Assembly: GCA_018287875.1 (NCBI GenBank)
Contig: JAGVVL010000009.1
Span: 4,216,001 to 4,280,000 of the forward strand
Origin: Nigrospora sphaerica
Lineage: Eukaryota; Ascomycota; Sordariomycetes; Amphisphaeriales; Apiosporaceae
DNA length: 64,000 nt
Direction of reading: 5' to 3'
Part shown: positions 6,413-49,438 of the stretch, one piece after another
Layout: each line of letters opens with the position of its first letter
How positions within the stretch are numbered: the first letter of the stretch is position 1
The notes under the pieces: generated by a model
What the model was told of the DNA's origin: nothing
Seen by the model: the letters and a program-made list of their open reading frames with translations, nothing else
Database searches by the model: none
Made by a program: the position numbers and the translations under genes

Positions 6413-6963
6413 TACTGATAGAACTAAGAACTAGTAACCCTGAGGTCTGGGAAATAAGGGAAACAGAAACCAGTGCCGGTGATGTTAAGTTGCCCGCCGA
6501 GTTCGACTCAATGATAGTACTCGGGCCAGATTTTCGTTCAGCAGTTTTCGCCTTGCGACCCGATGACGACTGGTGATTTAAGTACTTACGGCGCACCACA
6601 ACTACCTAATAATACTGTAGTAATATGCGGCCCTACAGAGGTAGGGGTCCGCCTCCAGTTAGGGAAAGTCAAGTACTACACGTAACTGGAGCGCATACGA
6701 GGAGGTTTCGTCCATGCTATGCTATACATCTGCGGCTTCGATGAGACGTCAGGAACTTAATCATGGACACGAGATAAGCGGTGTGTGGCACCAGTAATGA
6801 AGACATTACTTAAAGGATGCAGGAAATAGGGTGGTATTAGAACTCGAACGAGGACCCAGTTCGTACTTGTCCCCGGATAGTGAAGTGGCAGAAGAGGGCG
6901 CGCTGATGGCAGTCATGTGAGTCGTAGCTTTGGGATTGCGTTCTGTGTTTTCGCGACCTAGTA
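6413..6963. other. Spacer between the inverted transposons
   Basis: 551 bp of unique-looking sequence without a gene. It begins and ends with the TA target sites of the two copies. A short minus frame running from here into the repeat is not credible. Confidence 0.6.
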
Positions 6964-8822
6964 ACGTACATGTCAGGTCAGCGGAACATGTGGGTCAACG
7001 GAACACTTCCTGCAAATTCCCACCTCCCCAACTTTAACCGCGCTTTACTTTATAACAAATCATGAGAAACACTTCGAGCGAGTCGCAGATTATTCTAGCG
7101 GTTCAAGCGATTTAGAAGACTCCTAGTTTAAGTCTTCGCAAAGCCGTTAAGATCTTCTAGGTTTCTCTAACCACTCTCCATAGCCGGATGAACGGTAGAC
7201 GCGCCCGACAAGATACCCGCCCAGGCAGTTGTCGACTGTCCGAACTAGAAGAGAAAGCTATTGTTTAATACATTCTCGACTTAGATACGCGAGGGTTTTC
7301 CCCCGAATCTCTAACGTGGAAGATATGGCGAATGTTATCGCCGAGGCGCGTGACGCGTCACGCGTCGGGACGCGTTGGGCCTCGACCTTCGTGAAGCGCC
7401 AACCAGACCTTCGGACGCGTCTTTCGTGTGTATACGACTACTAGAGGGCCCTTTGCGAAGACCCTGAGAAGATCGCCGGCTGGTTCGGTCTTTTGCAGAA
7501 TATTAAGGCCAAGTACGGCATCCAGGACGAGGATATCTACAACTTCGACGAGACCGGCTTTATAATGGGCCAGATCGCGTCCACTATAGTCGTCACGGGC
7601 GCCGACTGTAACGGCAAACGAAAGAAGGTCCAGCCTGGCAATCGCGAATGGGTTACCGTAATCCAAGGCGTCTGTTCCGACGGCTGGTGTGTCCCGCCGT
7701 TCATCGTCGTGAAGGGTGCTTACCACCTCGCCAATTGGTACTCCGATAGCACCCTCCCACGCGATTGGGTAATTAAACCAACCGAGAATGGATGGACCGA
7801 TAATGAGACAGGCCTGGACTGGATTCGGCATTTCGATAAACATACCTCGTCGCGCGCGAAAGGCCGATATCGTCTATTAGTGATCGACGGGCACGAGAGC
7901 CACGTTTCGGCCGAATTCCAGGCTTTCTGTAAAGAGAAGAACATCATCACAGTCTCTATGCCTCCGCACTCGTCGCATCTACTCCAGCCACTTGACGTGG
8001 GGTGTTTTGGGCCACTAAAGCGGGCGTACGGTCGCGAAATCGAAACCTTTATGAAGTCACTCGTTAACCATATCACTAAGGCCGAGTTCCTTATCGCTTT
8101 CCAGGCCGCGTTTTTGAAGGTTTTTATACCCGAAAACGTCAAGGCTGGGTTCCGCGGAGCTGGTTTAGTCCCTCATAACCCGGAAAAGGTTATCTCGAAG
8201 CTCGACGTGAAGTTATCGACGCCTTCGCCGTCTAGCAGCCTCCCAACAGCAAGCATCCCATGGGCCTCTCAAACGCCGCACAACCCAACCGAGGCGACTT
8301 CGCAAACAGATTATATTACGAATCGAGTCCGCCGTCACCAAGGGAGCTCCCCGACACCAATTTTACTAGCAATTGACCAGCTTTCGAAGGGTGCGGTAGC
8401 AACAATGCATCGTGTTACCCTTTTAGAGGCTGAGGTCCGCAGCCTCCGAGAGGCGAATAGCAGCCTCGCAAAACGTCGCAAAATAAAGAAAAAGCGTATA
8501 CGAAATGGAGGAGCACTAGCTATTGGAGAGGCACAAGATATTTTAGATCAAAAGGACGCCGATACGCAGTTGAAGGAGGAAACACGTGCAAGTAGCAGTC
8601 GCGTAAGGAGGACTCAACCTCGCGGACAACGCTGCGGCACCTGCGGAGAGACCGGTCATAATGCTCGCACTTGTCAAATGGAAAAAGGTGTCTTTAAAGA
8701 GTCGGAAACGATTAGTTTGAATTGATTTAAGGTGTTATGGCGATATAATTGTCTGATTCTAATGGGATTGTGCTAGAAAGTGTTCCGTTGACCCACATGT
8801 TCCGCTGACCTGACATGTACGT
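6964..8822 (+). mobile_element. Pogo/Fot1-type DNA transposon, copy 2
   Basis: A 1859 bp element with the same 45 bp terminal inverted repeats and TA flanks (6962-6963 and 8823-8824), inverted relative to copy 1. Compared by eye, the two copies differ only in the transposase 5' half, by about 20 substitutions that are all transitions plus one single-base length difference in a C run (6 versus 5). Confidence 0.95.
7062..8725 (+). pseudogene. Pogo-like transposase, copy 2, inactivated
   Basis: Start ATG at 7062, stop at 8723-8725. The N-terminal third is destroyed: it shares the AVQAI-stop TAG with copy 1 and has further Gln-to-stop changes (IF-stop-V; a TAA where copy 1 reads IIQY; a TAG near 7441), plus a one-base deletion in a C run near 7303. 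From about 7455 the frame is intact for 410 codons and carries all three catalytic Asp residues (NFDETGF, VIDGHESH, LQPLDVG), a basic nuclear-localisation-like stretch (KRRKIKKKRIR) and the CGTCGETGH zinc knuckle. Confidence 0.9.
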
Positions 8823-12051: not shown

Positions 12052-14175
12052 CTAATGTAAAACAATGGTTTGGGTGGTTAGCATCCCTTTTTCGACTGCC
12101 GCGAGAGCCTCGCCGTCCATTATACCGTGGACGTAAGCCTCCCCTACCAGCGTGAAGTTTTGCTCTTCCTCTCTGGGTGCTCCTGGCCGTGCTTGCCGTA
12201 CCTTGCGCAGAAGAAACGGGACTTCAGCCCCTATTAGCACTCCGACATGGTCGCCTACCTCGCATGATTTTGGACCCCAGCCGACGTAGCCCTTTTCCGT
12301 GACGAAGAAGCGCTTTCCGTCGACCGCGGTGGATACCAGGGTACTGATATGAGTGAGAACCGTTTGCGTCACCCGCGCGTAGATGCTCCTGAGTTCGTCG
12401 AAGGTGAGGCCTCTCTCGGGATTAAAGGAGATGAGGTTGTGACCCTCAATGTACGTGTTCCAGAACTTGGTGAAGGCGGCGGCCTCAGTGGCAGTCGGGT
12501 GCTTCTCGGCGTCGAGGACTTTGATGACGTGCTTGTTGGCCGTCAGGGTCCTGCGGAAGGCCGTCTGCAGACTCTCCCCCGGCGTGTGGGGGTACGGAAT
12601 CACGTCGAGCATGTCCCAGAAGGAGCCGGCGGCGTAGTACGCGTCGCCGTGCCTCGCGACGCGGATCTCGGGCGGTTCAGCCAGGTCGATGGTGACGAAC
12701 TCGTGCGGCGGGTGCCGCTGCCCCACGTCGGCGAGGCACTGGCCACAGACGTCGTAATCGCTGCACACGGTGCATTTGTGCCGCGCGCCCGTGATCTCGC
12801 CCCCGCAGCCGCCGTCGCAATAGGCCCGGTACACGGCGTGACTGTTCGCGAGCATGTAGCACCACTGCCGGTAGCACTCCCTGTCGCCTTTCCAGCCCAC
12901 CGTGCTGCCGCTCAACTTGCCCACGTGCGTAATGCTGTCGTACAGGACGCCCGCCGTCTTCAGGAGTCTTTGGCTCGGGAACGACACCTCCACCAGGCCC
13001 TTGCCGCCTGCCGAGAAGCGCCCGCGCATAAAAGAACGAGTGATGTTCTTCGCTGCCAAGATGTCAATGTCGGTTGTCTGCGTCCAGTCGGGGGACCAGG
13101 AAGGGAGGCCGTTCATCCGTTTGTAATCGTCCTCAACGCCGCGTTGGGCTGCATGGTGTTTTACGAGGCCCTGGGAGTCCTCGTCGTCGGCAATGTACTG
13201 TAGGGCCTCGAGAGACCCGCTGTGCTCGATGATCCTGGACGTAATGTGGGCGATGCACTCCCTCAAAGGGATGTCGTAGCGAACGAGCCCGGGCGGCGTG
13301 TCGTTCGCAAGCCCAGCAAAGGCGTACACGAGGTCGCGAGGGTCCGTCGCCTTACGGCTAACGATATTCTGGAGAATTTCGAGAAGGCGCCGTTTCCCCT
13401 TGGTCATGAACTTGCTTCTGCCGTCCATCAGACCCATGAGTACACCCATGGTAGAGCCGAAAGCATTGGGCTCGTCAGGGTTCATATGGCCTGCTTTCTG
13501 CACCGAGGCACAGCATGCTGTGGCGTTAGAGAAATGCCCTTGGAGCGAACTCATATAGTCTTCCAGCTCCTGGTAGGTCAAAAAGTCTTCGCCTGCGTAG
13601 AAGACGATATCCCTGGCCAGAATAGCCTCTTGGAAGGTCCAAGCCCGGAAGAACCAAGCGTCCCAGTGCAGATGAAAATCCAAAAGTTCTTGAGGCGCAT
13701 TGGTAAAATGCAGTGAGGGATCTTTGCCATATGCCTTGACTGCATGTATGGTCTTCGTCATGTTGGTCTTTTGCCAGAAGACCACGACCTTCGAAGCCTG
13801 GAGATACACTTTACCCATCATGGATACCTGAGCATTACGCTCTTCGAAATCGGCCTGGTTGATGCACACAGCGTCGACCCATAAAGTGCGTGTCTCCGTG
13901 GGGGATCTGAGTGCCTTCAAGGCGTTGTGCAGGTTCTTCGTAACGGGGTGTGTGGATCCATTCAGGAGAATCTCTTGAGGGTCATCGGCGCTCCCCCACA
14001 CATATGATAGTGCGTCATATGTGGGATGGTCCTGTAAGCTGATGGTTCTCAGGTCGCAGCAAACCGTCTCGAGGCCGTTTTGGCTAGGCTGAATGTCTAG
14101 CACCCGAATCTCCTCCCGGGACGGCGCCAACGGTTGCCACCGGTCCATGCCGCTCCTCGGGGGTTGTGTGACCAC
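12052..14175 (-). CDS. HET-domain protein with internal ZZ-type zinc finger
   Basis: An intronless 707-residue frame. Residues about 50-200 form a heterokaryon-incompatibility (HET, PF06985-type) domain, shown by YDALSYVWG, LWVDAVCINQAD and the ERNAQVSMMGKVY block. Residues about 450-495 form a ZZ-type zinc finger with CDGGC, CTVC and CGQC cysteine pairs and a terminal HPPHEF histidine pair. HET proteins trigger cell death after fusion of genetically unlike hyphae, or act more broadly as NLR-like immune effectors; ZZ fingers bind peptides or modified N-termini. The ATG at 14175 gives a short lead before IRVLDIQP, normal for the family. Function in this strain is inferred from domains only. 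Confidence 0.92.
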   Translation of the reverse strand: MVTQPPRSGMDRWQPLAPSREEIRVLDIQPSQNGLETVCCDLRTISLQDHPTYDALSYVWGSADDPQEILLNGSTHPVTKNLHNALKALRSPTETRTLWVDAVCINQADFEERNAQVSMMGKVYLQASKVVVFWQKTNMTKTIHAVKAYGKDPSLHFTNAPQELLDFHLHWDAWFFRAWTFQEAILARDIVFYAGEDFLTYQELEDYMSSLQGHFSNATACCASVQKAGHMNPDEPNAFGSTMGVLMGLMDGRSKFMTKGKRRLLEILQNIVSRKATDPRDLVYAFAGLANDTPPGLVRYDIPLRECIAHITSRIIEHSGSLEALQYIADDEDSQGLVKHHAAQRGVEDDYKRMNGLPSWSPDWTQTTDIDILAAKNITRSFMRGRFSAGGKGLVEVSFPSQRLLKTAGVLYDSITHVGKLSGSTVGWKGDRECYRQWCYMLANSHAVYRAYCDGGCGGEITGARHKCTVCSDYDVCGQCLADVGQRHPPHEFVTIDLAEPPEIRVARHGDAYYAAGSFWDMLDVIPYPHTPGESLQTAFRRTLTANKHVIKVLDAEKHPTATEAAAFTKFWNTYIEGHNLISFNPERGLTFDELRSIYARVTQTVLTHISTLVSTAVDGKRFFVTEKGYVGWGPKSCEVGDHVGVLIGAEVPFLLRKVRQARPGAPREEEQNFTLVGEAYVHGIMDGEALAAVEKGMLTTQTIVLH

Positions 14176-15767
14176 GTCGCTTTCTTGAGAAGTAAGGATG
14201 TTGCTTATAGGCAGGGGCCGGACAGAAAGGAAGCTCGAGCTTTTTGTGGGAGAAACTGTTAGTAGGAGGCAGGTTCAAGAGGTTCGAGCTGACGTAGTCT
14301 TTATCATTTGGTAAATACAACAGGAGTCTCTTGATAACGACTGGTGCGACAGAATTAGCCTTCGTACCCTTACGTAACTACTTTTAGCACGTACCTGAAT
14401 GAGCAGGAACAAGGATGAATGCAGAGAGAGGCAGGTAAATATAGATACAAACATAAGCCGAATGTGGGACGTTCGTAGTTTTTGCGGGGGCGCTGAGCGG
14501 TAATGTGAGAATTTTGTCGCTCGCGGGGTTGAACATCCTTACAATCGCACGAGATTGCACGAACACCAGAATCTCTCTTTTAACAGGGGCAAGATGTGAG
14601 GCGCTATGCACATTCAGCGTGTCTGCCTCGGCCGGAACGAATAGTCGCACGCTTGCGAATAGCCAACTGTCAAAAGAAACACCTTGCTCCTGCGTGCACT
14701 CGTTTTAGCGACCGACTTATCCAGGTATGAGGGAAATGTCGCCTGGGTTTCCGCGCTCTTGCAGAGCACTACGCATATCCCTCAGGAGCCACCCATGTCG
14801 TCGTCCCGGACGATGCCCTCCATGCCACTCAAGTCCAAAGGGGCTCACGACTACAAAGCTGACGAAGAAACCATGTCACAGCTACACTATGTAAGGGAAG
14901 CCTCATGGCACCGTCTGATCACGAGAGCGAAGATGTCGCGTATGGGCTGGCCCGCTTCTCTGCCCCCCGGGCAAGCGTTGCCGATACGGACCCCAGTCGC
15001 AGTTCAACCAGCTCGGCCGGTGCGGCGAGACACGGTGGGCGAAGTGTCTCGGTGGAGGGCAAACACAGCCCCAGAGACCACACGGGAGGTTACCCGTCTT
15101 GCGCGCGCCCTGGCGGAAGTGGGCATCGCGTTCCCGTGCCGGGGCTGGATGTGCACAGGCTCCCCACGGGCCTCGGCTGCCGATGAACTCGGGCTGCTGG
15201 AGTCGAGTGGTAGCAAGAAGTTACCTGCGACATTTGTTTGACGGCTTGCTTGAGGGGGTCGGGCGAGGGACTGGGTGACGATATAGAGGGCAACACAAGC
15301 CCATTTCAAGACAGGCCTCAATGTCAGTGGCAACTGCAGGCGGAAAGAACGGATAGACAACTCCGTATATGCTGAGATTAGCGCAATTACCGCGCTAAAC
15401 TGGTGCCTGATCATGGGCTCCCACTTATGGCGGCTCAGAGGGGGATTGGTCAGCAGGAGCATAACTGCTGCCTGTTGCCGCCCAGCCGGCCCGGTTTCTT
15501 GCTAATTAGGGCGACCGCTGGGCCGCCAGGGCTAGGAGCTAAGCCCAGACCAAGGAGGGTTTAGCTGCAAAGGGACGAGCAACCAACCGAAACCACCTTG
15601 ATGACTCGCCTCCCCACCTTCCATTCGCCGTCACTGGGTCGCCCTCTTCAGCGCCCCTACGTCCGCCTTCATTTCACCTTCGCTTCTCCCCCATCAACGC
15701 GCCCTTGAGCGTCCCTATCGTTTACCCGTATATTCAATCTTTAAGCTTATTTTGTTTTTGACTTGCA
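14176..15767. other. Gene-poor stretch with an unassigned minus frame
   Basis: No recognised gene. The minus frame 15004-15462 (152 codons) has hydrophobic segments (FSAVIALISAYTEL, WACVALYIVTQSLA) followed by a Ser/Ala/Arg-rich tail and might be part of an unknown membrane protein. A competing plus frame at 14684-15241 overlaps it. Neither can be decided from composition alone. Confidence 0.35.
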
Positions 15768-24814: not shown

Positions 24815-26412
24815 TCATGCCCGCGCCGTCACTTCGAGGTACATCTCGTCTTGTATGAAGATGCCCAAGTAGTTTTTCGACCTCCATGGCCGCTCTGGGT
24901 TGACCAATGCCCAGTCAAAGTGCCGCATAAACTCAAACAAGACTTTGGTAATCTCGAGGGAGGCGATGGTCTTGCCCAAGCACTGGTACTTTCCATAGCC
25001 AAATATCAGCTCCGTGGTACGACGCATCTCATCGATTCGGCCCTTGTTGGCCGGGTCCTTCTCGTCCAGTAGCCATCGCTCGGGTCGAAAGTGCTCTGCG
25101 TCGGCGCCGAACAAGGCCTTGCTGTGGTGCAGACCAAAGACGCTGTAGCCGACATTGGTGCCTCCGGGGAGAAACACGGTGCGGCCGTCCACGGCGACGG
25201 TATCCCCGCCATCGGGAACCCTCTTGGGCGCAACGTCGCTGATGGGCGGGTGGATCCGGAGACCCTCACGGAAGACGGCCTGGAGGTACGGGAGGTTGCG
25301 CAGGGCCTTGTCCTGCACGATGCCGTCGGCGCCCACATCGCCGCGGTCGACGGCTTGATCCACCTCGGCTTGCAGCTTCCGGTACACGCGGGGGTGGGAG
25401 ATGACATGCAGCATGGTGGCGCGGATGGCCGTGGCCGTCGTGTCAGACCCGGCCAGTATCTGCAGGAAGGCCTCGGACAAGAGGTCGTCCCGGTTCAGGC
25501 CGTGCCGGGCGAAGGAAGCGAGCATGTCGGACCGGCCCTCCATGGACCGCTGGTAGCGCTGGTCGATCATGGCGCGGGCCACGCTCATCATTTTGCCGAA
25601 GCCCGCCCGGTCCGTCTCGGCCGGGCCCAGGAAGCGCGCGACGGGCGGCCAGTGGAAGAGGCGCGTCAGGCCCAGCGCGGCGACGGTCGTGATCACCCAC
25701 ATCCCTTCCTCGCTCGACTGCACGTAGGCTCCCACGTCGGCGTCGGCGTCCAGGTCCCCGAAGGCCTCGCCAAAGCCGATGGTGCTGATAACGTCGAGCG
25801 TGAAGTACTGGATCTTGCGCGCCAAGTCCACAGGCACCGACCGGCCCGGCGTCGTCAGGAACTTGCGCCGGAGCAGGTCGAGCAACTTGACGACCTGGGC
25901 GTCGATGTCGCCCTCGAGAGTCAGGTTCTCCTTGCCCGAGTACTAGGCCCCATGGTCAGCGTGAGCAGTCCCCAAGCGGGTTTTGGGCAAAGCCTCACTC
26001 CGGCCGCCATCTGCTGGCGTCTTTTGGTGTGCTTCTCTTCGTCAACCTGGCTGAATACGTGGTCTTTGCCCGGTTGCTGCCGTGACGCCGCATAGTACCA
26101 CCACGTACGCGTGTATGGCGATCGTACCGCGTTCATGTGCGTCAATAGCTCGGGCGAAGACGTGACCAGATCGTTCGGGCCCACCCGGGCAATGGCGCCA
26201 TACTTTTCCGTGACATGCTTGTAGGCCAGATGAGAGTTCAAGCCCAGGATTTTGTGCGTATGCCACAATTCGGACCATCCGGTGCCGAAAGGACCGCTGA
26301 AGGCGGCCAGCCTGCGGTATCGCCGATAAACGCCCACGAGGTGGATAACCACCGCCAGCGCGAGTAGGGATGACGCCCAGTGGTCTGTGATAACGTGAAA
26401 ATATGCCAGCAT
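24815..26412 (-). CDS. Cytochrome P450 (pisatin-demethylase/ABA-type)
   Basis: Two exons, 26412-25999 and 25942-24815, with a 56 bp intron (GTGAGG donor, CTGAC branch, CTAG acceptor) give 513 residues; the join reads QMAAG-YSGKENLTLEGD. There is an N-terminal membrane anchor (SLLALAVVIHLVGVY). P450 signatures: AGSDTTATAI oxygen-binding I helix near residue 300, EGLR (ExxR) near 363, FRPERW, and FGYGKYQCLGK with the heme-ligating Cys near 458. It resembles the pisatin demethylase-like P450s to which the abscisic acid enzymes BcABA1/BcABA2 belong. It lies 1.2 kb downstream of the ABA3-like synthase on the same strand, so it probably oxidises that enzyme's sesquiterpene. The precise ABA1 versus ABA2 identity cannot be told from sequence memory. 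Confidence 0.92.
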
Positions 26413-27645
26413 CTCTGCGAACAGGGGATTCCAAGTGAAGGGAGGGTCTTTGGGGATGCTGGAAGCAGATCGTGAAAGAAGTCGGGGATGGAGAACAGGC
26501 GACCCGAGCAGCGCGGGGTTCCCCCTCCTTCAAGAGGCATTTTTGATCGGCGAGGCCAAGTGATGCACGACATCGGCTCATAATTCCGGTTCTGGACTCT
26601 ACGGTGCGATTCTCCCGAGCCGGGCTTTTCATTGGACCGCATCATGTTTCGTGTGACGTGCGACATGCGAGATTCTTGGCGCTTGTTGCAGGGCCGGCAT
26701 ATCAGGGCGGAAAATAGACTGGGCCTGCAACCGGTCGGTGTCACCATTCGAGCTTCTACTAGTGTTGCCGGTGCCTCAGATTAGATCAGGTTAGAGGGCG
26801 GTGGCGGCGACGACATTGTTTTAAACCTTGATAAGTACCCTCGCGGCCGCCATAACCTCGGCAGTAGCAAATGGGTGCATTGAACGGCACTGCTTCCCCC
26901 CAGTGGCAATCGTAGGACCGGCTGATCAACTACCGGGTCCAAATAAATCGCGATTGTGGTGATAATCCGGTGGAAAACACAGCCTGACAGGTCTGCAGGT
27001 GGTAGTACCGGGAGTGCTGAGCCTTCTTTTCGTTTGCACGGTATGGGATCCTCGCTTCAACTAGCGGGCAGGCGATGTATAATGGCACAAGCATGTTGAC
27101 GTCACAGAAACCAGCGTCCTGGTTGATCATCACTAGTGGTGCGGTGCATGCATAGGGCCGAGGATGTCTGCCGAAGTCGTAGGGCTTAGGCACGCTACCG
27201 CTCTTGTCAGATCCAACAGGGATATATACATGTGCCTAGGGTGCTTATGCGCCGCCACTAGAGCAAGGAACCAGCAAATTGTGCAGGCGACGCAAGCTGG
27301 ACATAGCCACGCTCGTGCAGCAGGTACAAGGGCCGTGTGGCAAAAGCGCAGGCGGCTGAAGAGGCTCACGGGCATGGGCTCAAGCAATGAGGACTTCAAT
27401 CGCTTGGCGTATCACATATCGGTGTCGTTACTTCAGGTAAACAATCAGTGAAGCTCATCACTATCGTCTATATCGGACATTTCACACCACGTAGAGGAGA
27501 CAGGATCGTGTAGTTTGATACCCGGTTGTGTTACTATAGGAAATTTTACCAATCTCATGGTCGGAGCCATCCGTACAGATGATGAAAAGAAAACATGTTC
27601 AAACAAAACAGTCATATACATTGCGCCGTCGCCGTTGGGTGCATT
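26413..27645. other. Intergenic within the metabolic cluster
   Basis: Between the first P450 and the ABA3-like gene, both on the minus strand. It should hold the P450 promoter. No gene seen. Confidence 0.5.
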
Positions 27646-29085
27646 TCATTGAACTTGAACCGGGCGCACGGCTCTTTCCATGTCCTGCATAAGGCGGAGC
27701 ATGCCATTGCCGTCGGGCGGTGCCGCCGCCTCCATCTCCTCGCGCGGCCGCTTCTTCTCCTTGAACTCGACGGGGGGAGGGGTCCGGAGCACGACATCGG
27801 GAAAGGCCTCCTGCACACGCTCGGGCAGGGACTTGATGTAGCCCCGCCACATGGCGCGACAGCCGCGGCACAGCTCGACACCGCCGAAGCGGTGTATCTG
27901 CTGCGCGCCGTACGACGCCCGGTAGTGACACCGGTTGCAGTGCGGCGTCCCGGCCCGCTTGAGGTAGCCCGGCAGCTCCGGGAACATGAGCTCCTCGCTC
28001 CGCTCCATCAGGCTCCAGAACCGGTCTGCCCCGGGCGCCTCTGTCTCGAGCTCGACGCTGATTTCACTACCGTCGGTGCTCCTGGCGCAGTCGCTCTCGC
28101 TGCCGCTCTTGGCGCTGTCGCTAGTGCTGCCGTCGCTCATGGTGCTGTTTATGCTGGGATTCGCCCGGTGGCCCGGCGCCTTGGCCGGCGCCGGCGCGTG
28201 CATCTTGGCGCCGGTCGCGTCGACGCGGTTCCAGAGCTTCACGTTGTGGCGCGTCTCGTCGACGACGGCGGCCGTCTCGGCCTTGCCGATTGTCAGGTCC
28301 TCCTCGACGAAGCGGTAGCGGCGCATCATCATGTGGATCGGCCCGCCGAAGAAGCGCGTGAAGTTCATGAGGGCCACGCCGCCGGGCTTCCGGGCGTAGG
28401 CGACATCGAGGGCCCAGAGCATCTCGCGCGCGACGTGGAAGGTCTCGATGCGCAGGTCGGGCGGCACGTAGGCGAAGGTGCTGTTGGTCTCGCCCTCGCT
28501 GCGGTGCTTGTAGAAAGCGACGGCGTCGTAGAGAGTGTCGCCGATCTCGGTGAGCACCTCCCACTGCTCCTCGGTCGGGTATACGTCGTAGATGTCGTTG
28601 CAGGCCAGCGCCGCCGCCAGCGAGAAGCGCGCCAGCGCGTCGCAATCGCGCATGCGGAACCAGGTGCGCGGCGACTGCGCCAGCCCGTTAACGTAGCGGC
28701 GGAAGAGCTCGCTGTCGCGCCGTTTGCTTGTCTTCTCCGCCGTCACGAGCAGGAACGTCTTGTACTCGCGCTTCATGAGGGAGTGGCCCGGCGTGCCCTC
28801 GAAGAGCGCATCGAGCACGCCGTTGAGCGAGTAGCCCATGATTTGGTCGCTTCCCGCCACGTCAACGAGCTCGCCGCGGAACTCGGCGATGATGCCAATG
28901 ATGATGGTGCGCATGAAGGCGACATAACGATCCCAGTTGGTGTATTGGGGGATGACACAGCGTGTGTACTCCCAGGCGCAAGCGTACGCCTCCTGCTTCA
29001 GGGCTTCCGAAAGGCCGGTAACGCCATCCAGATCATGTGCTATATCCTCGGGATAGTACCACGCGTCTCTGAACTTGCCAGGCAT
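27646..29085 (-). CDS. ABA3-type sesquiterpene synthase
   Basis: An intronless 479-residue frame. It resembles Botrytis cinerea BcABA3, the non-canonical enzyme that cyclises farnesyl diphosphate at the start of abscisic acid synthesis and lacks classical DDxxD terpene-synthase motifs. Matching blocks include AWYYPEDIAHDL (residue 8), ACAWEYTRCVIPQYTNWDRY, FRGELVDV, MKREYKTFLLVTAEK, FRRYVNGLAQSPRTWF, MRDCDALARF, LTEIGDTLYDAVAFYKHRSE, FFGGPIHMMMRRYRF and RSEELMFPEL. Two features are noteworthy: a Ser/Asp-rich low-complexity insertion at about residues 298-362, and a putative four-cysteine zinc site (CNRC near 382, CRGC near 409). The ATG at 29085 sits just before the first conserved block. Neighbouring P450s on both sides support a biosynthetic cluster. 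No SDR resembling ABA4 is present in the window. Confidence 0.9.
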   Translation of the reverse strand: MPGKFRDAWYYPEDIAHDLDGVTGLSEALKQEAYACAWEYTRCVIPQYTNWDRYVAFMRTIIIGIIAEFRGELVDVAGSDQIMGYSLNGVLDALFEGTPGHSLMKREYKTFLLVTAEKTSKRRDSELFRRYVNGLAQSPRTWFRMRDCDALARFSLAAALACNDIYDVYPTEEQWEVLTEIGDTLYDAVAFYKHRSEGETNSTFAYVPPDLRIETFHVAREMLWALDVAYARKPGGVALMNFTRFFGGPIHMMMRRYRFVEEDLTIGKAETAAVVDETRHNVKLWNRVDATGAKMHAPAPAKAPGHRANPSINSTMSDGSTSDSAKSGSESDCARSTDGSEISVELETEAPGADRFWSLMERSEELMFPELPGYLKRAGTPHCNRCHYRASYGAQQIHRFGGVELCRGCRAMWRGYIKSLPERVQEAFPDVVLRTPPPVEFKEKKRPREEMEAAAPPDGNGMLRLMQDMERAVRPVQVQ

Positions 29086-31409
29086 TGTGGAAATTCGTTG
29101 TTTCTTTGGGTTGCCAGAGGTCGTGAGTGGTGAAGATGAGGCGAGTGGTGTTGCCTTTCCGAGCCAAAAGACCGTAACTATAGAGCTTAGAGTTTCAGAG
29201 GGAAAAGCTTAAGAGAGAAAATTTGGAGGGAGGGTGTCAATGATGGAACAATGTGATATTTTTCGCTTTCAAAAGACCTGGAGGGTAGTGTTCAGCTTAA
29301 GTAGAAAACTTTCAAGCAAGTAGCGGCTCTTTCCGGGAGGAATAAATGCAATCGCAAGCTGAAGTGAGTTGTTTGGGTTCATGCTTCCAAGATTTCAAAC
29401 GGAAACATGCCGACTTTTATGTTCCCCGAAAGGAATCTTCAAGCCTCCTCCGTACCCCTTCTGGTCTACACCCTTCGGCTTCTTTCCGTCGGTGAGTGCA
29501 CAACCAAAAACGGTCTCGCAAACGAATGGCTGCATATCCGCCAGGTCCCACTGACGAAGAAGTGCTCTTTGGGGCCGGGACTACCAGTTACTTGCGGATC
29601 GACCTCATCCACCCTACCTCATCCACTTTCAACCGCGTCAGCTCCCCCTCCCCACAATACCCCTCCTCGAGGGACAGGTTCTTTGGCCAGTCACACCATA
29701 CTTGGATAACTGGTTTTCTCTTCCTGTAAAGAGAGGCATGGGGAGGGTTGTTGACGTAGTGGCGTAAAGTCACCTTCCTAAAGCTATGAGCCGGTCCCAT
29801 GACTTGAGATCGGCCTATAATTGCTACATGGCTCCATTTATTGTGGCATGCGGGCGCTGTGGACCACCCCATTCATGTCGGATTAATGCGCCATTATAGC
29901 TATGGATGTCGGGTACTTTACTGTACATAAAGTGCAGGATTATAATCTGGAATAGTTCTGCAGGGGCACCAGGCCCGGCTCCGCGGGGGGCCCTAATTAA
30001 CATGCATCGCAGCCGGCCATGCCCTACTCTACGTGTATAACTTATCCCATGCTTTTCGTGTCACAGCTCTAATAAAAAGAACAGACAAGACTTTTAATGT
30101 GGCTCAGTGAAAGCCAAAGGCCACCTTTGATCCGTTGCCGACAGATGCCAAATATTGAAGTTGTCAAATATCGAAAGTTTAAAATAGTGAAGGTGTTAAA
30201 TACTGAAGGTATTCTCCGAGAATCCCTTGATATCCACGGGGTTTGGGGCGAGGTCCGTTCCCTGCCAATATCTAGCTTAGCAGGCTCGAGATAACCCAGG
30301 CTTCAAGACCAACCCCGCGCTTATTACCCAGTTGATATGACCCTCGCCAAGAAAAACTCTTTTATGAAGCCAGCTGAAATAATGTAGAGCTATGCGTAGT
30401 CGTATGTGAAAGTTTTTAATTCTTTGCTTTGATACTACCACCTAAAGTACTAATGATGGGAATTTCCTCTAGTACGTGGCAATAACAGCCGACTTTGATA
30501 CCTAATAGGAGACGTTTTACATACTTCTTACATGAAGCTAAGCAGGTAGTCGCAGAACATAGACGTCCGTTGCTGACGGGCTGCTCATATCGAGTCGATC
30601 CCCCCTCCCAATCCTCCTCCCCCGCGGAACAGCTTTCCAAATAATGCCGGGAAGGTTTAATGCCGATGACCTCACTGGAAATTCAGCATGGAGCTGCAGA
30701 AGAACGGGTTTCAATGCACTCGTGGCCCCGCTGATAGTGAAAGAGTTGTAGAGATATCGCGCAAACCTGAGTCAGGTTGTGGCGAGGAGCGTCCGGCAAG
30801 TGTTACCAGCGAATACGGCGCTTAAAAGAGTCATGCATGTTTGCCACCATTGCGTTTGGGCTTCGTATGGACGCGATCGTGTTGTTTCCTCCAATGGCGC
30901 CCAGCCGCGGTGTCATGGTAACAAGTGATTCCTGCATCAGCCTCGAAGCTTAAAGAGTGGTTCGCACGGGGTGAGTTGCGATGAAAGTACAGGTACATAT
31001 CAGTGTGAGCACATGTTCATGGACCCTGCAGGGGATCGATAAACAAGGCCAAGTGATCAGCGAAAAAGAGGAGTTAGCGAGAGGCGGTGGACGTCTCAAA
31101 GAACACCACGGAATTCCGTGGTTTTGGGAGACCTGGGAACCCTATGTCTGCTTGATTAAAACGCCTATCTCGCACCCCGAAAGTTGCTTCGATCCGGCGT
31201 ATCCGCGATCGCGTGGTCTGTGGCCTGAAAATCGAAATTGTATTTCAGAACCTTTTCATCTTGCACAACCCTTGGGAATGTTTCCCACGCACAACCATAT
31301 TCATTCTACCGTTGAAGAGTGCTCAGCCTTACTAAGGCTTGCCTACATTTACATTGTTGCCACCATCTTGTCTGTCAGAATCGTCTCCTCTGTGCTTTAA
31401 GGTCTTGTC
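29086..31409. other. Divergent promoter region of ABA3-like and P450 genes
   Basis: 2.3 kb between divergent genes, moderately AT-rich, with no supported gene. It probably contains both promoters. Confidence 0.45.
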
Positions 31410-33591
31410 ATGGAGTCTCTCAACGTCACCACGAACAGTCTCCCCTGCGTCCTCCTCGGCAAGTTTGCGCCCAGCATTCAGGATGCCTGTCAGAATGAAT
31501 GGCTTCCGGGGCTGCAGCTCTTGCCGTACGTCGAGCATATTTCGCCGTACGTCCAGCAGATGAGGCTGCCTCCGGCCCTGTCTCCGCATGTGGGGCGGTA
31601 CATCGGCCTTATGGCCGTGTCCGTCTTGGTCTGGTACGTGGGGACCAGCGTGGCGACGTGGTATCGGCTGCGCCAGTTCCCGGCGGCGTCGTGGCTCGCC
31701 AACTTCTCGTACCTCTGGCTGGCCAAGACGACGTACAGCGGGCGGCAGTACTGGGTGCACCGGGAGCTGCACCGCAAGCACAAGAGCCCGCTGGTGCGCA
31801 TCGGGCCCAACGAGCTCATGACGGACGACCCTGAGATCATCAAGCGCATCAGTGCGGCGCGGAGCGGCTATGAGCGCGACACCTGGTACATCACGGGCCG
31901 CTTCAACCCTTACCACGACAACATGTTCACGGTGCTGCAGCCCAAAGAGCACACGCAGTTCAAGTCGCGCACCCTGCACGCCTACAGCGGGCGGGAGATG
32001 CCCGAGTTCGAGGCTGGCATTGACGCCCAGGTCCACACCTTACTCGACACGGTGCAGCGCAAGTACGCCGCCTCTGCGAAGGGGCGCCCGGGCGAGGGCA
32101 AACTCCTCGACCTGGGGCCCCTTTCGTGCTACTTTACCATGGACGTCATCACTCGCCTCGGCTTCGGCCACGAGTTTGGTTATCTTAAGTCCGAAACAGA
32201 CCTGTACAATTTCCTGAAGGGTGTTCACGACCTCTGGCCCCGCATGTCCACGTCAGCCGATATCCCCTGGATCCGCAACATGATTTTCTCTAAGCCCTTC
32301 CTAAAGGTTCTGGGCCCGAAGCCGCAGGATAAGGAGGGTTTTGGGGCTCTGATGGCGTACGTACCTGTTACTTAGTTCCCTTGCGGGTATTTCCCCTCTG
32401 CCTCCACACCCTCTCATTTACCTGCCCTGTCCCTGTCGCAGTCTCTGCCGGATTCACGGCCGAGTGGAACGCGGGCTGGGTGGGACAAAGTACGGGCGCG
32501 AACGGACAATGCGGCTGACATGCGGGATGCAGGGTGGCCGAGCGCCATGTCAGCAAGCGCTTCGAAGAAGGCATCGATGCGAAGCAGGACATGCTGGTAA
32601 GTCGGCCCCTTCCCGATTCTACCCCGAGGACAGGGATCCCCCCTGCCCCCTGTCCGCCACTTCCCGGTCCCCTTCTTGACTCCACCCCAAGGACGGGGGA
32701 CCACCGGCCTACCGACCCCGCAGTGAGCTGACCCATACGCAGGCGTCCTTCATGAAGCACGGTCTGACCCAGACGGAATGCGAAGTCGAGGGCCTCTTCA
32801 TGGTGGTGGCGGGCACTGAGAGCACCGCCTCGGCGATTCGGTCGGTTCTGGTGCACACCATGTCGACGCCGGCAGTCTATGCGCAGCTCAAGGCCGAGGT
32901 GGCCGAGGCGGTGCGCTCGGGGGCCGCGTCGTCGCCCATTATCCGCAACGAGGAGGCGGTCCAGCTGCCGGTGCTGCAGGCCGTCATCTACGAGGGCATC
33001 CGCATGCGGCCGCCGCTGCTGGGACTGCTGCCCAAGGTGGTGCCCAAGGGCGGCGACACGCTCGCGGGCCACCGCGTGCCCGCCGGCACCTCAATCTGCA
33101 CCAACGCCTCGTCGCTGCTGCGCTCCGAGGCCCTCTTCGGCCCTGAGCCCGAAGTCTTTCGCCCCGCGCGTTTCCTCGAACTCAAGGACCCCGCCGCCCG
33201 CGCCGCCATGCAGCGCAACGTGGAGCTTGCCTTCGGCTCGGGCCAGTGGCAGTGCGTTGGCAGAACCATCGCTTTCATGGAGCTGCACAAAATTGTGTTT
33301 GAAGTGAGTAAAAAATAAAACCCCACTTCCCCCCTTCCAAACGCTCTTGCCTCTGTGGCCCCGGACATCCCTCTTCCGCAACAACTCGTCCTCGACCTGC
33401 CCGTTTTGCCCTTCCTACTCCCCATCTTATCTGGATCCCTCTTCGGTACTCTAGGTTGTGCTAACCAGGTCCAGATGTTTCGCCACTTTGATCTCCAGCT
33501 TGTTAGTCCTTTGGACCCTTGCGATGTCCTCAGCTACGGCGTTTTCCTTGAGTCCAACCTGATGGTCAAAGTTACGGAGGCCAAGGCTTGA
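31410..33591 (+). CDS. Cytochrome P450 of the ABA-like cluster
   Basis: Four exons, 31410-32356, 32533-32596, 32743-33303 and 33475-33591, give 562 residues; all joins keep frame (ALMA-VAERHVSKRF, KQDML-ASFMKHG, KIVFE-MFRHFDLQL). The anchor is unusually far in (LMAVSVLVWYVGTSVATWY near residue 70), after a 65-residue leader. Signatures: AGTESTASAI near residue 360, EGIR (ExxR) near 420, FRPARF, and FGSGQWQCVGR with the heme Cys near 508. It is divergent from the ABA3-like gene and similar in style to the P450 at 24.8-26.4 kb, so the pair plausibly corresponds to the two P450s of the abscisic acid pathway. Intron 2 contains an imperfect ~60 bp duplication. Confidence 0.9.
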
Positions 33592-36968: not shown

Positions 36969-39028
36969 ATGCTTCATCTTGTACTGACGGTTCTGGGCCT
37001 CCCAGTTCTGCTGCTTCTCGCGCGCGGCTTCTATAATGTCTTCCTCCATCCGCTTCGACGCTACCCGGGCCCGCTGCTATACCGGGCAAGCTTCTTGCCG
37101 CTTATCCTGAAGCACTGCCAGGGAGACTCAACGCGCTTTATTGAGGAACTGCACCAGCAGTACGGGCCCGTTGTTCGCATCGAGCCCAACTTGCTGAGCT
37201 ACGCCGATAGCCAGGCGTGGTTCGACATCTACGGGCACCGTAAGACGGGTCCCGAGGCAAAAACGAAGCCTAGAGGCAACTTGCCCAAGACGTCTTATGG
37301 CGTGCGGACTAATCTGAACGGTGTTTCCGATATCGTAAGCCGAGCCATATGCACTCCCTCTTGGCTTGAAGTTCGTTTCGTGGTTCTAATAAAACATGAC
37401 AACAGCTTAATGCACCATCCGAAGATGACCACAGGCGCATGAGGAAGGTGATGAGCCACATGTTTGCCCCAGGTGCCGTGGCCGCTGAAGAACCTCTGGT
37501 ACAGCGATATGTAGACAAGATGATAGAGCGCCTTCGAGAAAGGGCTGTCCGAAACGAGGAAATCGACATGGTCATGTGGTACAAGTATGTGCTTCCAGTT
37601 GCTTCGCTTTTTACCCGGGGGCAACGAGCTAACACTGTTCCAGTTACACCACTTTTGATCTACTGGGCGCGTTGGCCTTTGACCAAGACTTTAGCTGTCT
37701 CGAAAGCTCAGAGCTTCACGTAAGTGGCAAGACAGTCGCGACCTCGATGGGCCGTGGATTTTTTGACGCTGACGGCGTGTCGCAGCCGTGGGTGACCAAT
37801 GTATTCAAGTCGCTGAAGAGTGGCTATCTGCAGCGAACGTTGAATCGGTTCCCAGCCCCTTTTAGCAAGTGGGCCCTAAAGTATTGGAGCAACAACAGCC
37901 TGGCGCAGGCTCGGAAGGCCGAGTTCAACTTCGCAGTAACCAGCGCCAAGACCAGAATGGCCCGTGGCGTCGATGAAGGCAAGCACGACTTCATGAGCTA
38001 CATGCTGAAGAACAACGACGAGAAAGGGCAAGTTCGCTACCACGCCCATCCCAGGTCACGTCTCGGCCAAGAGGTTGAACTAACTTCATCTGCACAGCAT
38101 GTCCGAGGGGGAGATCATTAGCAACTCGGCTATCTTGATCATCGCCGGCAGCGAGACATGTAAGTAGCTGGCTCGCCGTGCCCTGCCGCTGATAGCCACT
38201 ACTTTGACGTATACTAACCATGGGTAGCTGCTTCCTACCTCTCGGGCGTCACGTACATGCTGCTGATGAACCCTGCCATTATGGAGAAGCTGCAGACCCT
38301 GATCCGCTCGACTTTCGCCACGGATGCCGAAATCACGGCGTCCTCCCTTGCCGAACTGGAGTATCTGACTGCGGTGCTGAAAGAAGCCGGGCGCCTATAC
38401 CCCGCCTTGCCCTCCGGTATGTCCGCTGTTCCCTCTGCCGTCCCCTCCCCGCCCGTCCAATGCTCCTACCTCGTATGGTACACGCGTGGCCGCTGACAGC
38501 TGTGCTCTGTTCTTCAAGGCCAACCCCGCGTGGTCACTGAAAGCGGAGCCTTCATCGCTGGCGAGATGGTGCCTCCAGGCAGCATCGTCTTCACGCACCC
38601 GATGGGTGCCAGCAAGGCGCCCTTCAACTTCACTGACCCGCAGCGGTTCGTGCCGGAGCGTTGGCTTAAGGAGCCTCCGGCCCAGTACGCCAATGATAAC
38701 CTCGAAGCTTCCATGCCATTCGGGCTGGGTCCGCGGTCCTGCATAGGCCAAAGGTACGTAGACGCTTGCCTTGCATTTGGTCCCAACCCCCTCGCCGTCC
38801 CTTTGGCTTTTCATTTCCCGTCTCTGTAAACGCTAATGCGCGTTCAGCCTTGCATGGGTCGAGATGCGCCTCATTCTAGGGCGTCTGCTATGGAACTTTG
38901 ACCTGTCAATAAGCCCTGAGTGTAGCCGCTGGATTGATCGTCAGAAGGTCTTCCAGGTTTGGGAGAAGACACCGCTCAAGGTATGGGTCACGATGCGAGG
39001 GGATCTTTCTGAAAAGACGAGGGTGTAG
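36969..39028 (+). CDS. Cytochrome P450 with eight exons (CYP65-like)
   Basis: Eight exons: 36969-37334, 37406-37584, 37644-37719, 37786-38027, 38098-38159, 38228-38416, 38519-38753 and 38848-39028, giving 509 residues with all phases consistent. N-terminal anchor LVLTVLGLPVLLLLARGFY, then the proline hinge LHPLRRYPGPLL. Signatures: IIAGSETSASYL I helix near residue 305, KEAGR (ExxR) near 360, FVPERW, and FGLGPRSCIGQR with the heme Cys near 445. The intron at 38028-38097 uses a GC-AG donor (GCAAGT). Motifs such as NYTTFDLLGALAF and MSEGEIISNSAILI resemble the CYP65/isotrichodermin-hydroxylase-like group. The substrate is unknown; its place in a cluster with the ABA3-like synthase suggests sesquiterpenoid tailoring. 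Confidence 0.9.
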
Positions 39029-40311: not shown

Positions 40312-42139
40312 ATGGCCCACCGGTATCTCGAAACTGCGTCGGTGCCCACGACGGCGCGGTTGGTCCAGGCAGGAACTTTCGTGGTAAGCACCGAGTTCCG
40401 AGAGTCTTTACCATGAGATCCTGCTGAGAAATTCCCTCTTCTTCAGCTGCTAGTGGTATTTGCCATCCATGTGCTTCGCATGCGCGTATTACATCCTCTG
40501 CGGCGGTACCCAGGGCCCTGGTTCAACAGCATTTCCGAGATCCCAGCCGCGTGGGTGCTTCTCAGAGCTCGCCAGCCCAAAGCGTACAAGGCGCTCCACG
40601 AGAAATACGGTTAGTCCATAAGCATTACACGAAGCCTGGGAGGTGAAACATGTGCTGACTCCATCCTCCGCTCCAGGCCCCGTGGTGAGAGTCGCACCCA
40701 ACGAACTCAGCTTTATTGACGTTGAGGCTTGGGATGACATTTATGGCTTCCTGGTAGGGACACCGTGTAGGCCGCAGGGCTTTTGGCGGCGTGGCTCGGA
40801 GCGCTGACATAAAGCAGAAATCGACGCCCAATTTCGAGAAGAGTCCAATCTTCATTGGTGCCGTCTCGCCCCTCGACGGGCAGACGGGCATCAGCCTGGC
40901 CAACAATGAGGCGCACACACGCCAGCGGCGGGCTCTGGCAGCGCCTTTCACCAACCGGGCGCTGCTACAACAACAGGACATTCTCCGGGCTCACGTCGAC
41001 AAGCTCATTGCGACGCTGAAGGCCAAAGCAGAAAACAGGGAGGCGGTCAACGTGGCCAATTGGTGTAAGTAACCCGCCAGGGCACAACCACGGCTTTCCG
41101 CGGGTTTCCACATGACACTAACAGAAGCCATGCAGACACGTATACAACCTTCGACATCATTGGCGACGTCTGCTTCGCGGAGCCCTTCGGGTGCCTGGAC
41201 GGCGGGCAATCCAACGAGTGGGCGCGGGCCATCATCAACATCTTCAGGGCCGCCGTCTGGGACCAGGCGATCCGGCGCGTGGCCGGCGTAGGCACGCTGC
41301 TGCACCGCGTGCTCGTCCGGCTGCTGGTGCCGGCCGAAGCGGCGCAGTGGCGGGCGCTGCACTTTGCCAACTCCAAGGCCAAGACGCTGGAGCGGCTCGC
41401 CGACCCGGGGCGGGATCACCCGGACCTCATCAAGCACATCCTCGACAGCGCCGACTCGCGCAACTCGCTCAGCCCGACCGAGATCATCCTCAACATGGTT
41501 CTCTTTATCAGCGCCGGCAGCGAGACCACAGCCAACACCATGACGGGCTGGACCTACTTCATGCTGCGCAACGACGCGGCCCGCGCGCGTGCGACGGCCG
41601 AGGTGCGCGCCGCCTTCGCGTCGCCACACGACATCAGCTGGGAGACGGTAAAGGCGCTGCCGTACCTCAACGCGACGCTCGAGGAGGCGCTGCGCCTCTT
41701 CTCGCCGGCGCCGTCGAACCAGCCGCGCGTGGTGCCGCCGGGCGGCGCCGTCGTGGCCGGGCGCCCGCTGCCGGCCGGCACCACCGTGTCCGTGGCCCCG
41801 TGGGCCGCCGTATTCTCGCCCCAGCACTTCGCTGAGCCCGAGCGCTTCCTCCCCGAGCGCTGGCTCGACGGCCCCGACGCCGACCCGCGCTTCACCAATG
41901 ACCGCCGCGCCGCCTCGCAGCCCTTCGGCACCGGCCCCCGCGGCTGCATGGGCAAGAACCTCGCCTACTTCGAGCTGCGCCTCGCCCTCGCCTCCCTACT
42001 CTGGCACTTTGACCTCGCCCCCAGCGACAGTCCCACCGGCCGCGCCGCCCTGCGCCGCTGGGACGAGGGCGACATGGAGACCTACCAGACCTGGATGAAG
42101 CCCGACTTGTGGGTCGATATCAAGGTGGCGCAGCGGTAG
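40312..42139 (+). CDS. Cytochrome P450 with five exons
   Basis: Exons 40312-40383, 40447-40609, 40677-40753, 40815-41064 and 41136-42139 give 521 residues. Joins read GTFV-LLVVFAIHVL, EKYG-PVVRVAPNEL, IYGFL-QKSTPNFEKSP and ANWY-TYTTFDIIGD. The third acceptor could also be 3 bp later. N-terminal anchor region, then LHPLRRYPGPW. Signatures: SAGSETTANT I helix near residue 312, EEALR (ExxR) near 370, FLPERW, and FGTGPRGCMGK with the heme Cys near 457. The last exon is much more GC-rich than the 5' exons. It is on the same strand as the preceding P450 and the AsaB-like oxidase; substrate unknown. Confidence 0.9.
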
Positions 42140-47505: not shown

Positions 47506-49438
47506 AGCTCACCCCCCCACCAAAGAGCCAACCCCCCAAACGGCCAGAGGTCAAGATGGCCTCACGCGATGGCAACACTACGGATCAATTGAAATATCTC
47601 AACAACCACAATAGCTACGCACAAGCAGACTGATCTCAAGAGACTATGATGCAGTCTTCTACCTCAGAATCGACTTCTTCGTCCGATCCGTCTGTGCAAA
47701 CAGCTTCAGATTCCACAGTGACCGTACCCCCTATATCTTCAGGGGTCGACATCTCCTCCTTGACTTTGCGCACGTTTAGTATTGTCACGAAACAGTCCTA
47801 AGCGGTTAACTAAACCTTACGTCGTTTCTAGGGCTTCTGGCGATCCAGCGCTGCAGCCAATTGGTCTCGTTTGTGCTTCAGACTGGAGATCTCAGCGGTC
47901 GCTTAGTCTAAGGCCTTGCCAGCTTTCCGAAAAACCTAACGTAGCGTTGCGTTGTTATAGACTAGATCAACACCACTAAGGTCCCGGTGGATTACGCTGA
48001 TTTAACGTGACGTCCTCGGTGTCTTAACCTCTAGAGCAGACATCTGCGATAGCAGAGGGTCCTCCCTTAGCTACGGAACACACCAATTTGACCCCTCTAG
48101 CCTATCGCGGTCATGCTGCCTTACTAGTCGGCTATTAAGCGGCTTACTGGGGTCCCTTGGATAAATGCCGGTCGCTCTCCAGCCTGTGGCAATATGCTCT
48201 GGTGTTAGAGCCTCCTTACAAGCCTTATTCCAGACCTCCAGAAACTCTAGCTTCTTTAAAGTCAGTGTTAAGCTAGTAAAGTAGGTGTCATGTAGGTATT
48301 TCCAATAGGCTCGCTTTAACACTAAGAAAGGGCCGAGATTTAACGGCTGTAGTACTTAAGAAGTATAAGCTAGTAAAAAGTTAAGCTAAACGCGTGCCTC
48401 GAAACAGGTTATTATAAAGTCCTTAACGTAGTGGCTTACGTGGCTATCGAGGATAAGGTGCCGCCACTGTTTAGGGTCTTCTGGAGCCGTCAGAGGCACG
48501 AATATCTGTTTCAGCTAACGTAGTGTAATTGAATTGCTAGTCTAGCCAGCCTGTGAGGCTTTAAAAGACCAGCTTTCGAGGTCCTGCTCGTCGACTTGAG
48601 AGTTGAACCACTGCTGTTGAACTGACTTGCCCTTGAAAATCACTAGTGGAGGCAGCGCGCGGCCAGCGGCAGAGATTGCTTCTAGAGAGGTCGTCCACTC
48701 GCCTCGAAACGTATCCATAGCGAAGATCTGGCTTATAGCGGCAGGTCCGATAACGAAGGGGCAGTCTCCAAGGCCAATCTGAGCACCTATCTTATCGAAG
48801 TTCCAGGTGTGCTCTAGTGGGATGCTGGCGAGGTCTTCGTGGGCCAGCCTTTCGAAGAACTCCTCAATATTGGCGCGAGAGGCGCCATTGAGGCGCTGGA
48901 AATCCATGCCAGTGGAAACCAGTGTCTTCACTTGCGGCCAGCGCTTAAAGAGCCGGTAATGCCAGCGTTTTCTAAGGCGGCAGTGGCTTCCGGAGGTGTT
49001 AAGGGTGGACTGGGCGAATTGACGAAAGCGGCCGTGTGTTGGAGCCCAGCTAAGGCGGCCTTGAAGTAACACCCACGCCACAAGCTAGCGCTCTTGCTCC
49101 TCATTGAGGGCTTGGTGATGCTCCTAGGCATGCATTTTCAGAGGCTTGCAATTGAATCTGGCAGTCAACCAGTGCCTGGTGACGTTGTATTGCTTAGCGA
49201 CTGAGCGGATTGATTAACCTTGGGTCACTTGGAGGAGAGCGGCAGCTAGCTGCACTTCATCCATCGATATAGGTATCAAACGAAAGAGCGGAAAACGGTG
49301 ATTCTCGAGATGTCATTTTCTTGTCTGTAAAATGTCTGATTGTTTAAATCTTCGGTGTTGAAGGTTTGTGATTGCCTTATCTGTTATCCGAAACCAGTGG
49401 CTGTTTGGGGGGTTGGCTCTTTGGTAGGGGGGCGAGCT
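47506..49438 (-). mobile_element. Second type of pogo-like DNA transposon, degraded
   Basis: A 1933 bp element flanked by TA (47504-47505 and 49439-49440). Terminal inverted repeats of about 40 bp start AGCTC and contain ACCAAAGAGCC; the few mismatches between the ends are transitions. The repeats and transposase differ from the 1.86 kb pair at 4.5-8.8 kb, so this is a separate family. Confidence 0.9.
48071..49250 (-). pseudogene. Degraded pogo-like transposase
   Basis: Pieces in order on the minus strand: a helix-turn-helix region near 49200 (EVQLAAALLQVTQG-stop-SIRSVAKQYNV), a large fragment 49081-48542 with WNFDKIGAQIG at the first catalytic position, and PLVIFKGK, and a C-terminal fragment ending 48071 with LKRAYWKYL and ATGWRATGIYP. 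The third catalytic Asp is changed: LQPLNLGPF instead of the expected LQPLD. Where DE is expected in NFDE, DK is seen. Both are G-to-A type changes, as are the stops, consistent with RIP. Confidence 0.85.

What the first reader, a model, noticed from the sequence alone, without database searches (positions are those of the whole stretch)
24815..33591. ABA3-type sesquiterpene synthase flanked by two P450s: candidate abscisic-acid-like cluster
The 479-residue protein at 27646-29085 carries many conserved blocks of Botrytis BcABA3, and P450s lie on both sides, as in the BcABA cluster (two P450s plus the synthase plus an SDR, ABA4). No ABA4-like SDR is present here, so the organism may make abscisic acid with the SDR elsewhere, or a different product from the same cyclisation chemistry. 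Finding a plant-hormone-type pathway in this fungus would be notable.
Basis: partly seen in the sequence, partly recalled or inferred. Interest (0 to 1): 0.85.

Follow-up and report, generated by a model that had tools for sequence, protein, structure and literature searches.

The report
Fungal abscisic-acid core gene pair
A fungus related to the rice-blast and take-all fungi carries an intact pair of genes that, in grey mould, start the fungal route to the plant hormone abscisic acid; this is another example of a known pathway, with its later steps still unidentified here.

Summary
The central observation holds. An intact, intronless ABA3-type synthase (479 aa) lies at 29085-27646 on the MINUS strand. 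It is 56% identical to Botrytis BcABA3, keeps all 96 family-conserved columns, and its model matches the BcABA3 crystal structure 8zac. 'Two flanking P450s as in BcABA' is half right: the left-hand P450 (26412-24815, -) belongs to another clade, and 0 of 109 listed relatives share a contig length with ABA3 hits. No SDR (ABA4) was found in the window. ABA2 and ABA4 orthology could not be tested: no reference sequence was retrieved. ABA3 and P450 genes with neighbouring locus tags, induced in wheat roots, are already in print for Gaeumannomyces (PMC6629770), and ABA clusters without ABA4 for Colletotrichum (PMC10482981). New member of a known kind; whether the product is ABA itself is about even.

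The parts
27646..29085 (-). ABA3-type sesquiterpene (alpha-ionylideneethane) synthase, 479 aa, no intron, with a low-complexity Ser-rich insert at about residues 295-350 and a C-terminal pair of CxxC motifs
31410..33591 (+). P450-B, ABA1 orthologue, 562 aa, four exons (31410-32356, 32533-32596, 32743-33303, 33475-33591), divergently transcribed from ABA3
29086..31409 (.). intergenic region between the divergent ABA3 and ABA1 genes; probable two-way promoter (inferred from layout only)
   Evidence: gene models; sequence; regulation not tested
24815..26412 (-). P450-A, 513 aa, two exons (26412-25999, 25942-24815); not the ABA1 orthologue; clade of P450s named 'benzoate 4-monooxygenase-like' or 'pisatin demethylase', nearest named rows from Pleosporales
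36969..39010 (+). P450-C, multi-exon P450 (approximate hand-made model, 528 aa); candidate ABA2 by gene order only
40430..42136 (+). P450-D, multi-exon P450 (approximate model, start not fixed), 32-33% identical to P450-C

Best explanation
The locus holds the ABA3-ABA1 core of the fungal abscisic-acid pathway in a Magnaporthales fungus. By homology, ABA3 cyclises farnesyl diphosphate to alpha-ionylideneethane and ABA1 oxidises the side chain to alpha-ionylideneacetic acid. One or more of the other three local P450s (most likely P450-C or D, possibly A) and an SDR elsewhere in the genome would finish ABA or a close analogue. Shown by computation: the identity of ABA3, the orthology of ABA1, their recurrent linkage, and intact frames of both. 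Inferred: the reactions, the later steps, the end product, expression.
For: ABA3: 56% identity to BcABA3, 80-81% to the nearest (unnamed) relatives. 0 departures in 96 columns at least 95% conserved over 121 sequences, the window's own included. In an 89-of-121 set (support 99) with BcABA3 and all 17 rows marked ABA1-linked. The model matches 8zac BcABA3, E 2.6e-29, target TM 0.91. ABA1: best full-length hits are Pyricularia at 74-78% (two of three named 'aba1'), Gaeumannomyces at 70-73% and, lower, a Botrytis cinerea protein at 63%; it groups with the ABA3-linked P450s. Linkage: 16 of 120 ABA3 hits share a contig length with hits of the ABA1 search, 0 with 109 A-type hits; consecutive locus tags in five pairs (RB595_010203/4, RB598_006187/8, PG984_005041/2, G7Z17_g855/6, LEMA_P087750/60). 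Reactions of BcABA1 and BcABA3 as reported in passages of PMC6876084 and PMC13288456. In Gaeumannomyces GGTG_11845 (ABA3), _11844 and _11842 (P450s) are all induced in wheat roots (PMC6629770).
Against: ABA2 and ABA4, both part of the Botrytis pathway, were not identified. P450-A is not what the parallel with BcABA predicts. The Botrytis protein at 63% is a 'hypothetical protein' in its source, so the name ABA1 rests on names that other sources gave to relatives. Contig length is a proxy: each hit shows only the longest contig of its cluster. No expression or metabolite data for this fungus.
Confidence: 0.82

Rival explanations
1. The fungus makes abscisic acid itself: P450-C or P450-D is ABA2 and an SDR elsewhere in the genome serves as ABA4. 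(This is a finer version of the best explanation, naming the end product.)
For: In Gaeumannomyces the induced genes include GGTG_11845 (ABA3), _11844 (pisatin-demethylase-type P450) and _11842 (P450), an order like ABA3, ABA1, gap, P450-C here (order by tag number only). A separately placed ABA4 is known in Colletotrichum tofieldiae (PMC10482981 section 8). This genome has many SDR genes (20 matches listed in each, overlapping lists). bcaba4 is reported as involved but not essential in Botrytis (passage of PMC6876084).
Against: P450-C and D are only about 25% identical to ABA1, and no ABA2 sequence was available to test them. ABA4 orthology was not tested for any SDR.
Confidence: 0.5
2. The cluster makes a different ionylidene-type sesquiterpenoid: ABA3 and ABA1 feed a distinct tailoring set in which P450-A is a recruited enzyme.
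For: P450-A lies about 1.2 kb downstream of the ABA3 stop codon, on the same strand. It is nested (support 96) in a seven-row set otherwise of Pleosporales (order names recalled) or unnamed sequences, away from the Magnaporthiopsis and Gaeumannomyces members of its family. 0 of 109 listed relatives share a contig length with ABA3 hits.
Against: Proximity alone does not show co-regulation; P450-A may be an unrelated neighbour.
Confidence: 0.25
3. The synthase makes another sesquiterpene: an ABA3 relative with changed cyclisation.
For: Two residues after the conserved ND the window has Tyr where BcABA3 has Asp (ACNDIYD against ACNDLDD).
Against: That position varies across the family (Asp, Leu, Tyr, Cys, Thr); all 96 conserved columns are kept; ABA1 is its recurrent partner.
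Confidence: 0.1
4. The locus is silent or decaying.
For: Transposase-like pieces lie in the window, about 16 kb left of P450-A and 6 kb right of P450-D. None of the 120 listed ABA3 hits is named P. oryzae, and PMC4664623 reports no ABA3 orthologue in strain 70-15, so loss occurs in this group.
Against: ABA3, P450-A and P450-B have complete frames with GT-AG introns in the two P450s; C and D give full P450 domains on approximate models. End branches of ABA3, P450-A and P450-B are short (0.08-0.13).
Confidence: 0.08

Closest known systems
Botrytis cinerea BcABA1-4 abscisic acid cluster
   Same: ABA3 synthase (56% identity, same fold as 8zac) and the ABA1 P450 near it
   Different: no SDR found in the window; the second flanking P450 is from another clade than ABA1 and its kin; two extra P450s; ABA2 not identified
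Gaeumannomyces graminis var. tritici ABA3 locus (GGTG_11842, _11844, _11845)
   Same: ABA3 and a pisatin-demethylase-type P450 with consecutive locus tags, another P450 close by; same fungal order (recalled)
   Different: expression there is measured in wheat roots, here unknown; a P450-A-like neighbour is not mentioned in the passages read
Colletotrichum tofieldiae ABA(-BOT) cluster
   Same: ABA1 and ABA3 together, ABA4 not in the cluster
   Different: there joined to botrydial genes and ABA2; no terpene synthase of the usual Pfam families was seen in this window's scans (ORFs chosen by hand)
Bacterial ABA3 relatives (SkABA3 8zaf/8zag; actinobacterial loci L024-L027, L029, L030)
   Same: same family and fold
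   Different: the seven hits named as bacterial fall in the other 32-of-121 set; at E 1e-8, of these six loci only the Actinoplanes and Amorphoplanes ones have an ORF resembling the window P450s, at 25-32% identity

Membership tests
ABA3-type alpha-ionylideneethane synthase | full-length homology to BcABA3 with family-conserved residues | tested here: met
   56% identity to P0026 over 91% of the query; 0 departures in 96 columns
ABA3-type alpha-ionylideneethane synthase | ABA3 fold | tested here: met
   model pLDDT 76.4, pTM 0.77; 8zac E 2.6e-29, TMt 0.91
ABA3-type alpha-ionylideneethane synthase | makes alpha-ionylideneethane from farnesyl diphosphate | not testable with these tools
   needs enzyme assay
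BcABA-type cluster | ABA1 orthologue near ABA3 | tested here: met
BcABA-type cluster | P450-A is ABA2 | tested here: inconclusive
BcABA-type cluster | ABA2 orthologue in the cluster (P450-C or D) | not tested
BcABA-type cluster | ABA4-type SDR in the cluster | tested here: not met
   no SDR in the window: hand-chosen ORFs, listed genome matches, four-sequence profile over all six frames, best E 3.2, with 4 of 4 held-out SDRs recovered at E 4e-23 or better. A diverged many-exon SDR is not excluded. Clusters without ABA4 are known
BcABA-type cluster | ABA4 orthologue elsewhere in the genome | not tested
   SDRs exist but no ABA4 sequence was retrieved
ABA-producing fungus | abscisic acid made | not testable with these tools
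   needs LC-MS

The most novel reading that the evidence does not exclude
A conserved ABA3-ABA1 module has been rewired: P450-A, nested among Pleosporales P450s and so possibly acquired by transfer, together with P450-C and D, takes alpha-ionylideneacetic acid to a hormone analogue other than abscisic acid that may act on, or evade, plant ABA perception.
Probability: 0.17. Interest if true: 0.65.

Novelty: new member of a known kind. Interest (0 to 1): 0.36.

Why it matters
Abscisic acid was measured in the rice blast fungus, and removal of an ABA4 orthologue about halved it, yet no ABA3 orthologue was found in strain 70-15 (PMC4664623, passages). Here, and in P. grisea, P. pennisetigena and Gaeumannomyces, ABA3 is present, and the ABA1 of P. 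oryzae is 77% identical to this one. A likely history (inference) is an ancestral ABA3-ABA1 module in Magnaporthales with loss of ABA3 in P. oryzae. That makes testable how, or whether, the blast fungus makes ABA without ABA3, with this fungus as the ABA3-bearing comparison.

Tried and rejected
P450-A as ABA2: rejected as the lead reading by linkage and phylogeny, not by direct comparison. The uniref name 'Cytochrome P450 monooxygenase ABA1' on many P450-A relatives was not taken as orthology, since those proteins are far from the ABA3-linked clade. Search for ABA4: the genome-wide SDR lists scored only 19 and 18 candidates, so they cannot exclude an ABA4. My first SDR profile (control) was faulty: two of its four training rows (L016, L017) were the longest frame, not the SDR frame. 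I rebuilt it from the right frames: 4 of 4 held-out SDRs recovered, nothing in the window better than E 3.2. Bacterial ABA3 loci as a source of an ABA4-like SDR: no help; their ORFs were compared only with P450-A and P450-B, not scanned for SDRs. L028, a 'Deltaproteobacteria' MAG contig, looks like fungal contamination (split P450, ankyrin-like repeats) and gave no identifiable ABA2 or ABA4. P450-C against solved structures gave only distant P450s, best CYP3A4. The label test has no power (500 of 500 shuffles as low), because nearly all labelled rows are of one kind; I use only the groupings. Papers: the search for the 8zac-8zag structure paper found none held; Siewers 2006 is not held. Searches were seen as listings. 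Of PMC4664623, PMC13288456, PMC10482981, PMC6876084, PMC6629770 and PMC12836960 I saw passages, and of PMC10482981 also section 8 whole.

From, 10 of 120 rows were left out as ABA1-type and one for having no length (109 kept). From, 119 of 120 were typed: P0353's length was left out and the last three labels are shifted by one; the left-out length is in no ABA3 row, so the count of 16 is unchanged. RB595_010203/4 was added as a 17th pair by locus tag for the trees. Trees: one search used 121 rows; one search used 64 chosen hits (20 A-type, 44 of the 120) plus four window P450s. Both are quick searches with SH-aLRT support only and midpoint roots.
Full report
What is there. The window is part of a 51.6 Mb, 33-contig genome (G000:C33:4216001-4280000). 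The 479-codon frame at 27646-29085 is coding on the minus strand; the plus-strand frame of the same stretch is a shadow. The protein has no Pfam match at E 0.01 and no NCBIfam match at E 0.1, but matches PDB chains 8zad/8zae, 8zac ('Alpha-ionylideneethane synthase aba3') and, less strongly, 8zaf/8zag. It is the only match of this protein in its own genome at E 0.001.

ABA3. Of 378 database hits the best 120 are listed: 80-81% to unnamed contigs (source 'lgn'), 70-74% to Pyricularia pennisetigena and P. grisea, 69-73% to Gaeumannomyces, 56% to 'Bcaba3' of Botrytis cinerea. In an alignment of 121 sequences it departs from none of 96 columns that are at least 95% conserved. In the tree of those 121 it sits in a nine-row set (support 100) with the Pyricularia and Gaeumannomyces rows and unnamed ones, inside an 89-row set (support 99) that holds BcABA3 and all 17 ABA1-linked rows; the seven hits named as bacterial fall in the other 32 (midpoint root, quick search). 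An AlphaFold2 model (pLDDT 76.4, pTM 0.77, weak over about residues 290-339) matches BcABA3 8zac (E 2.6e-29, target TM 0.91), RuABA3 and SkABA3; the next match, the terpene synthase CotB2, is at E 0.27.

ABA1. P450-B (31410-33591, +, four exons, 562 aa) is transcribed away from ABA3 across a 2.3 kb gap. Its best full-length hits are Pyricularia proteins at 74-78%, two of the three named 'aba1', then Gaeumannomyces at 70-73%, Monosporascus, Colletotrichum cereale, and a Botrytis cinerea protein at 63%; three partial unnamed hits are at 79%. In the P450 tree it is next to Pyricularia (support 88) in a clade with the ABA3-linked P450s and the Botrytis protein. The ABA3-ABA1 pairing is therefore a recurrent unit. 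Each hit shows only the longest contig of its cluster, so some linked pairs will have been missed.

P450-A. The other flanking gene (26412-24815, -, 513 aa) is 36% identical to P450-B. Its nearest kin are an unnamed full-length hit at 83% and two partial ones at 85-86%, then Phaeosphaeriaceae and other Pleosporales (order names recalled) at 66-69%. The tree nests it (support 96) in a seven-row set of such rows, with Magnaporthiopsis and Gaeumannomyces members of the family elsewhere. 0 of 109 relatives with a listed contig share its length with an ABA3 hit. If it were ABA2, orthologues linked to ABA3 would be expected among these hits. I read it as a lineage-specific neighbour, possibly recruited.

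Further genes. Two tandem P450s follow ABA1: P450-C (about 36969-39010) and P450-D (about 40430-42136), 32-33% identical to each other and 23-28% to A and B. No SDR appears in hand-chosen ORFs, among the genome-wide SDR matches listed, or with a four-sequence profile over all six frames of the window (best E 3.2; control 4 of 4 at E 4e-23 or better, which replaces the faulty profile). A diverged multi-exon SDR cannot be excluded.

How it likely works. In Botrytis, ABA3 makes alpha-ionylideneethane (passages of PMC13288456); ABA1 oxidises it to alpha-ionylideneacetic acid, ABA2 converts that to the 1',4'-dihydroxy acid (passage of PMC6876084); ABA4 is involved but not essential (same). The first two steps follow for this fungus by orthology (inference). 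ABA2 might be P450-C or D: in Gaeumannomyces GGTG_11845 (ABA3), _11844 and _11842 (P450s) are all induced in wheat roots and lowered by a biocontrol bacterium (PMC6629770), an order that resembles ABA3, ABA1, gap, P450-C. This is a lead, not a test; that GGTG_11844 is ABA1 was not tested.

What is known. ABA clusters of ABA1-ABA3 with ABA4 elsewhere are described in Colletotrichum (PMC10482981 section 8). ABA3 in Gaeumannomyces is in print (PMC6629770). For P. oryzae, orthologues of ABA1, 2 and 4 but not ABA3 were reported (PMC4664623); none of the 120 listed ABA3 hits is named P. oryzae, while its ABA1 is at 77%. In the listings I saw no paper on this exact pair in Pyricularia relatives. The fungus itself was not identified; both trees place it, with unnamed rows in the first, beside Pyricularia (support 88 each).

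Verdict. A sound, intact ABA3-ABA1 core: a new member of a known kind. Useful as an ABA3-bearing relative of the blast fungus; the end product and the role of the three other P450s are open.

Noticed in passing
window 56496-58085 (-), with 58589-59752 (+) and 53818-55353 (+): A DIT1/PvcA isocyanide-synthase-type gene beside an MFS transporter and a GMC oxidoreductase: a possible second small metabolite cluster.
   Followed up: no
   Followed up: partly
window 4650-8725 and 48542-49084: DDE_1/Tc5-type transposase pieces on both sides of the locus.
   Followed up: no
window 12052-14274 (-): HET-domain protein with a ZZ zinc finger.
   Followed up: no
L028:7988-11134: A contig filed as a Deltaproteobacteria MAG carries an ABA3 relative beside a P450 split over several frames and, further along, ankyrin-like repeats; it looks like fungal contamination.
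   Followed up: partly
L024, L025: Actinoplanes and Amorphoplanes ABA3 relatives have a P450-like ORF directly upstream (25-32% identity to the window P450s), a possible bacterial ionylidene pathway.
   Followed up: no
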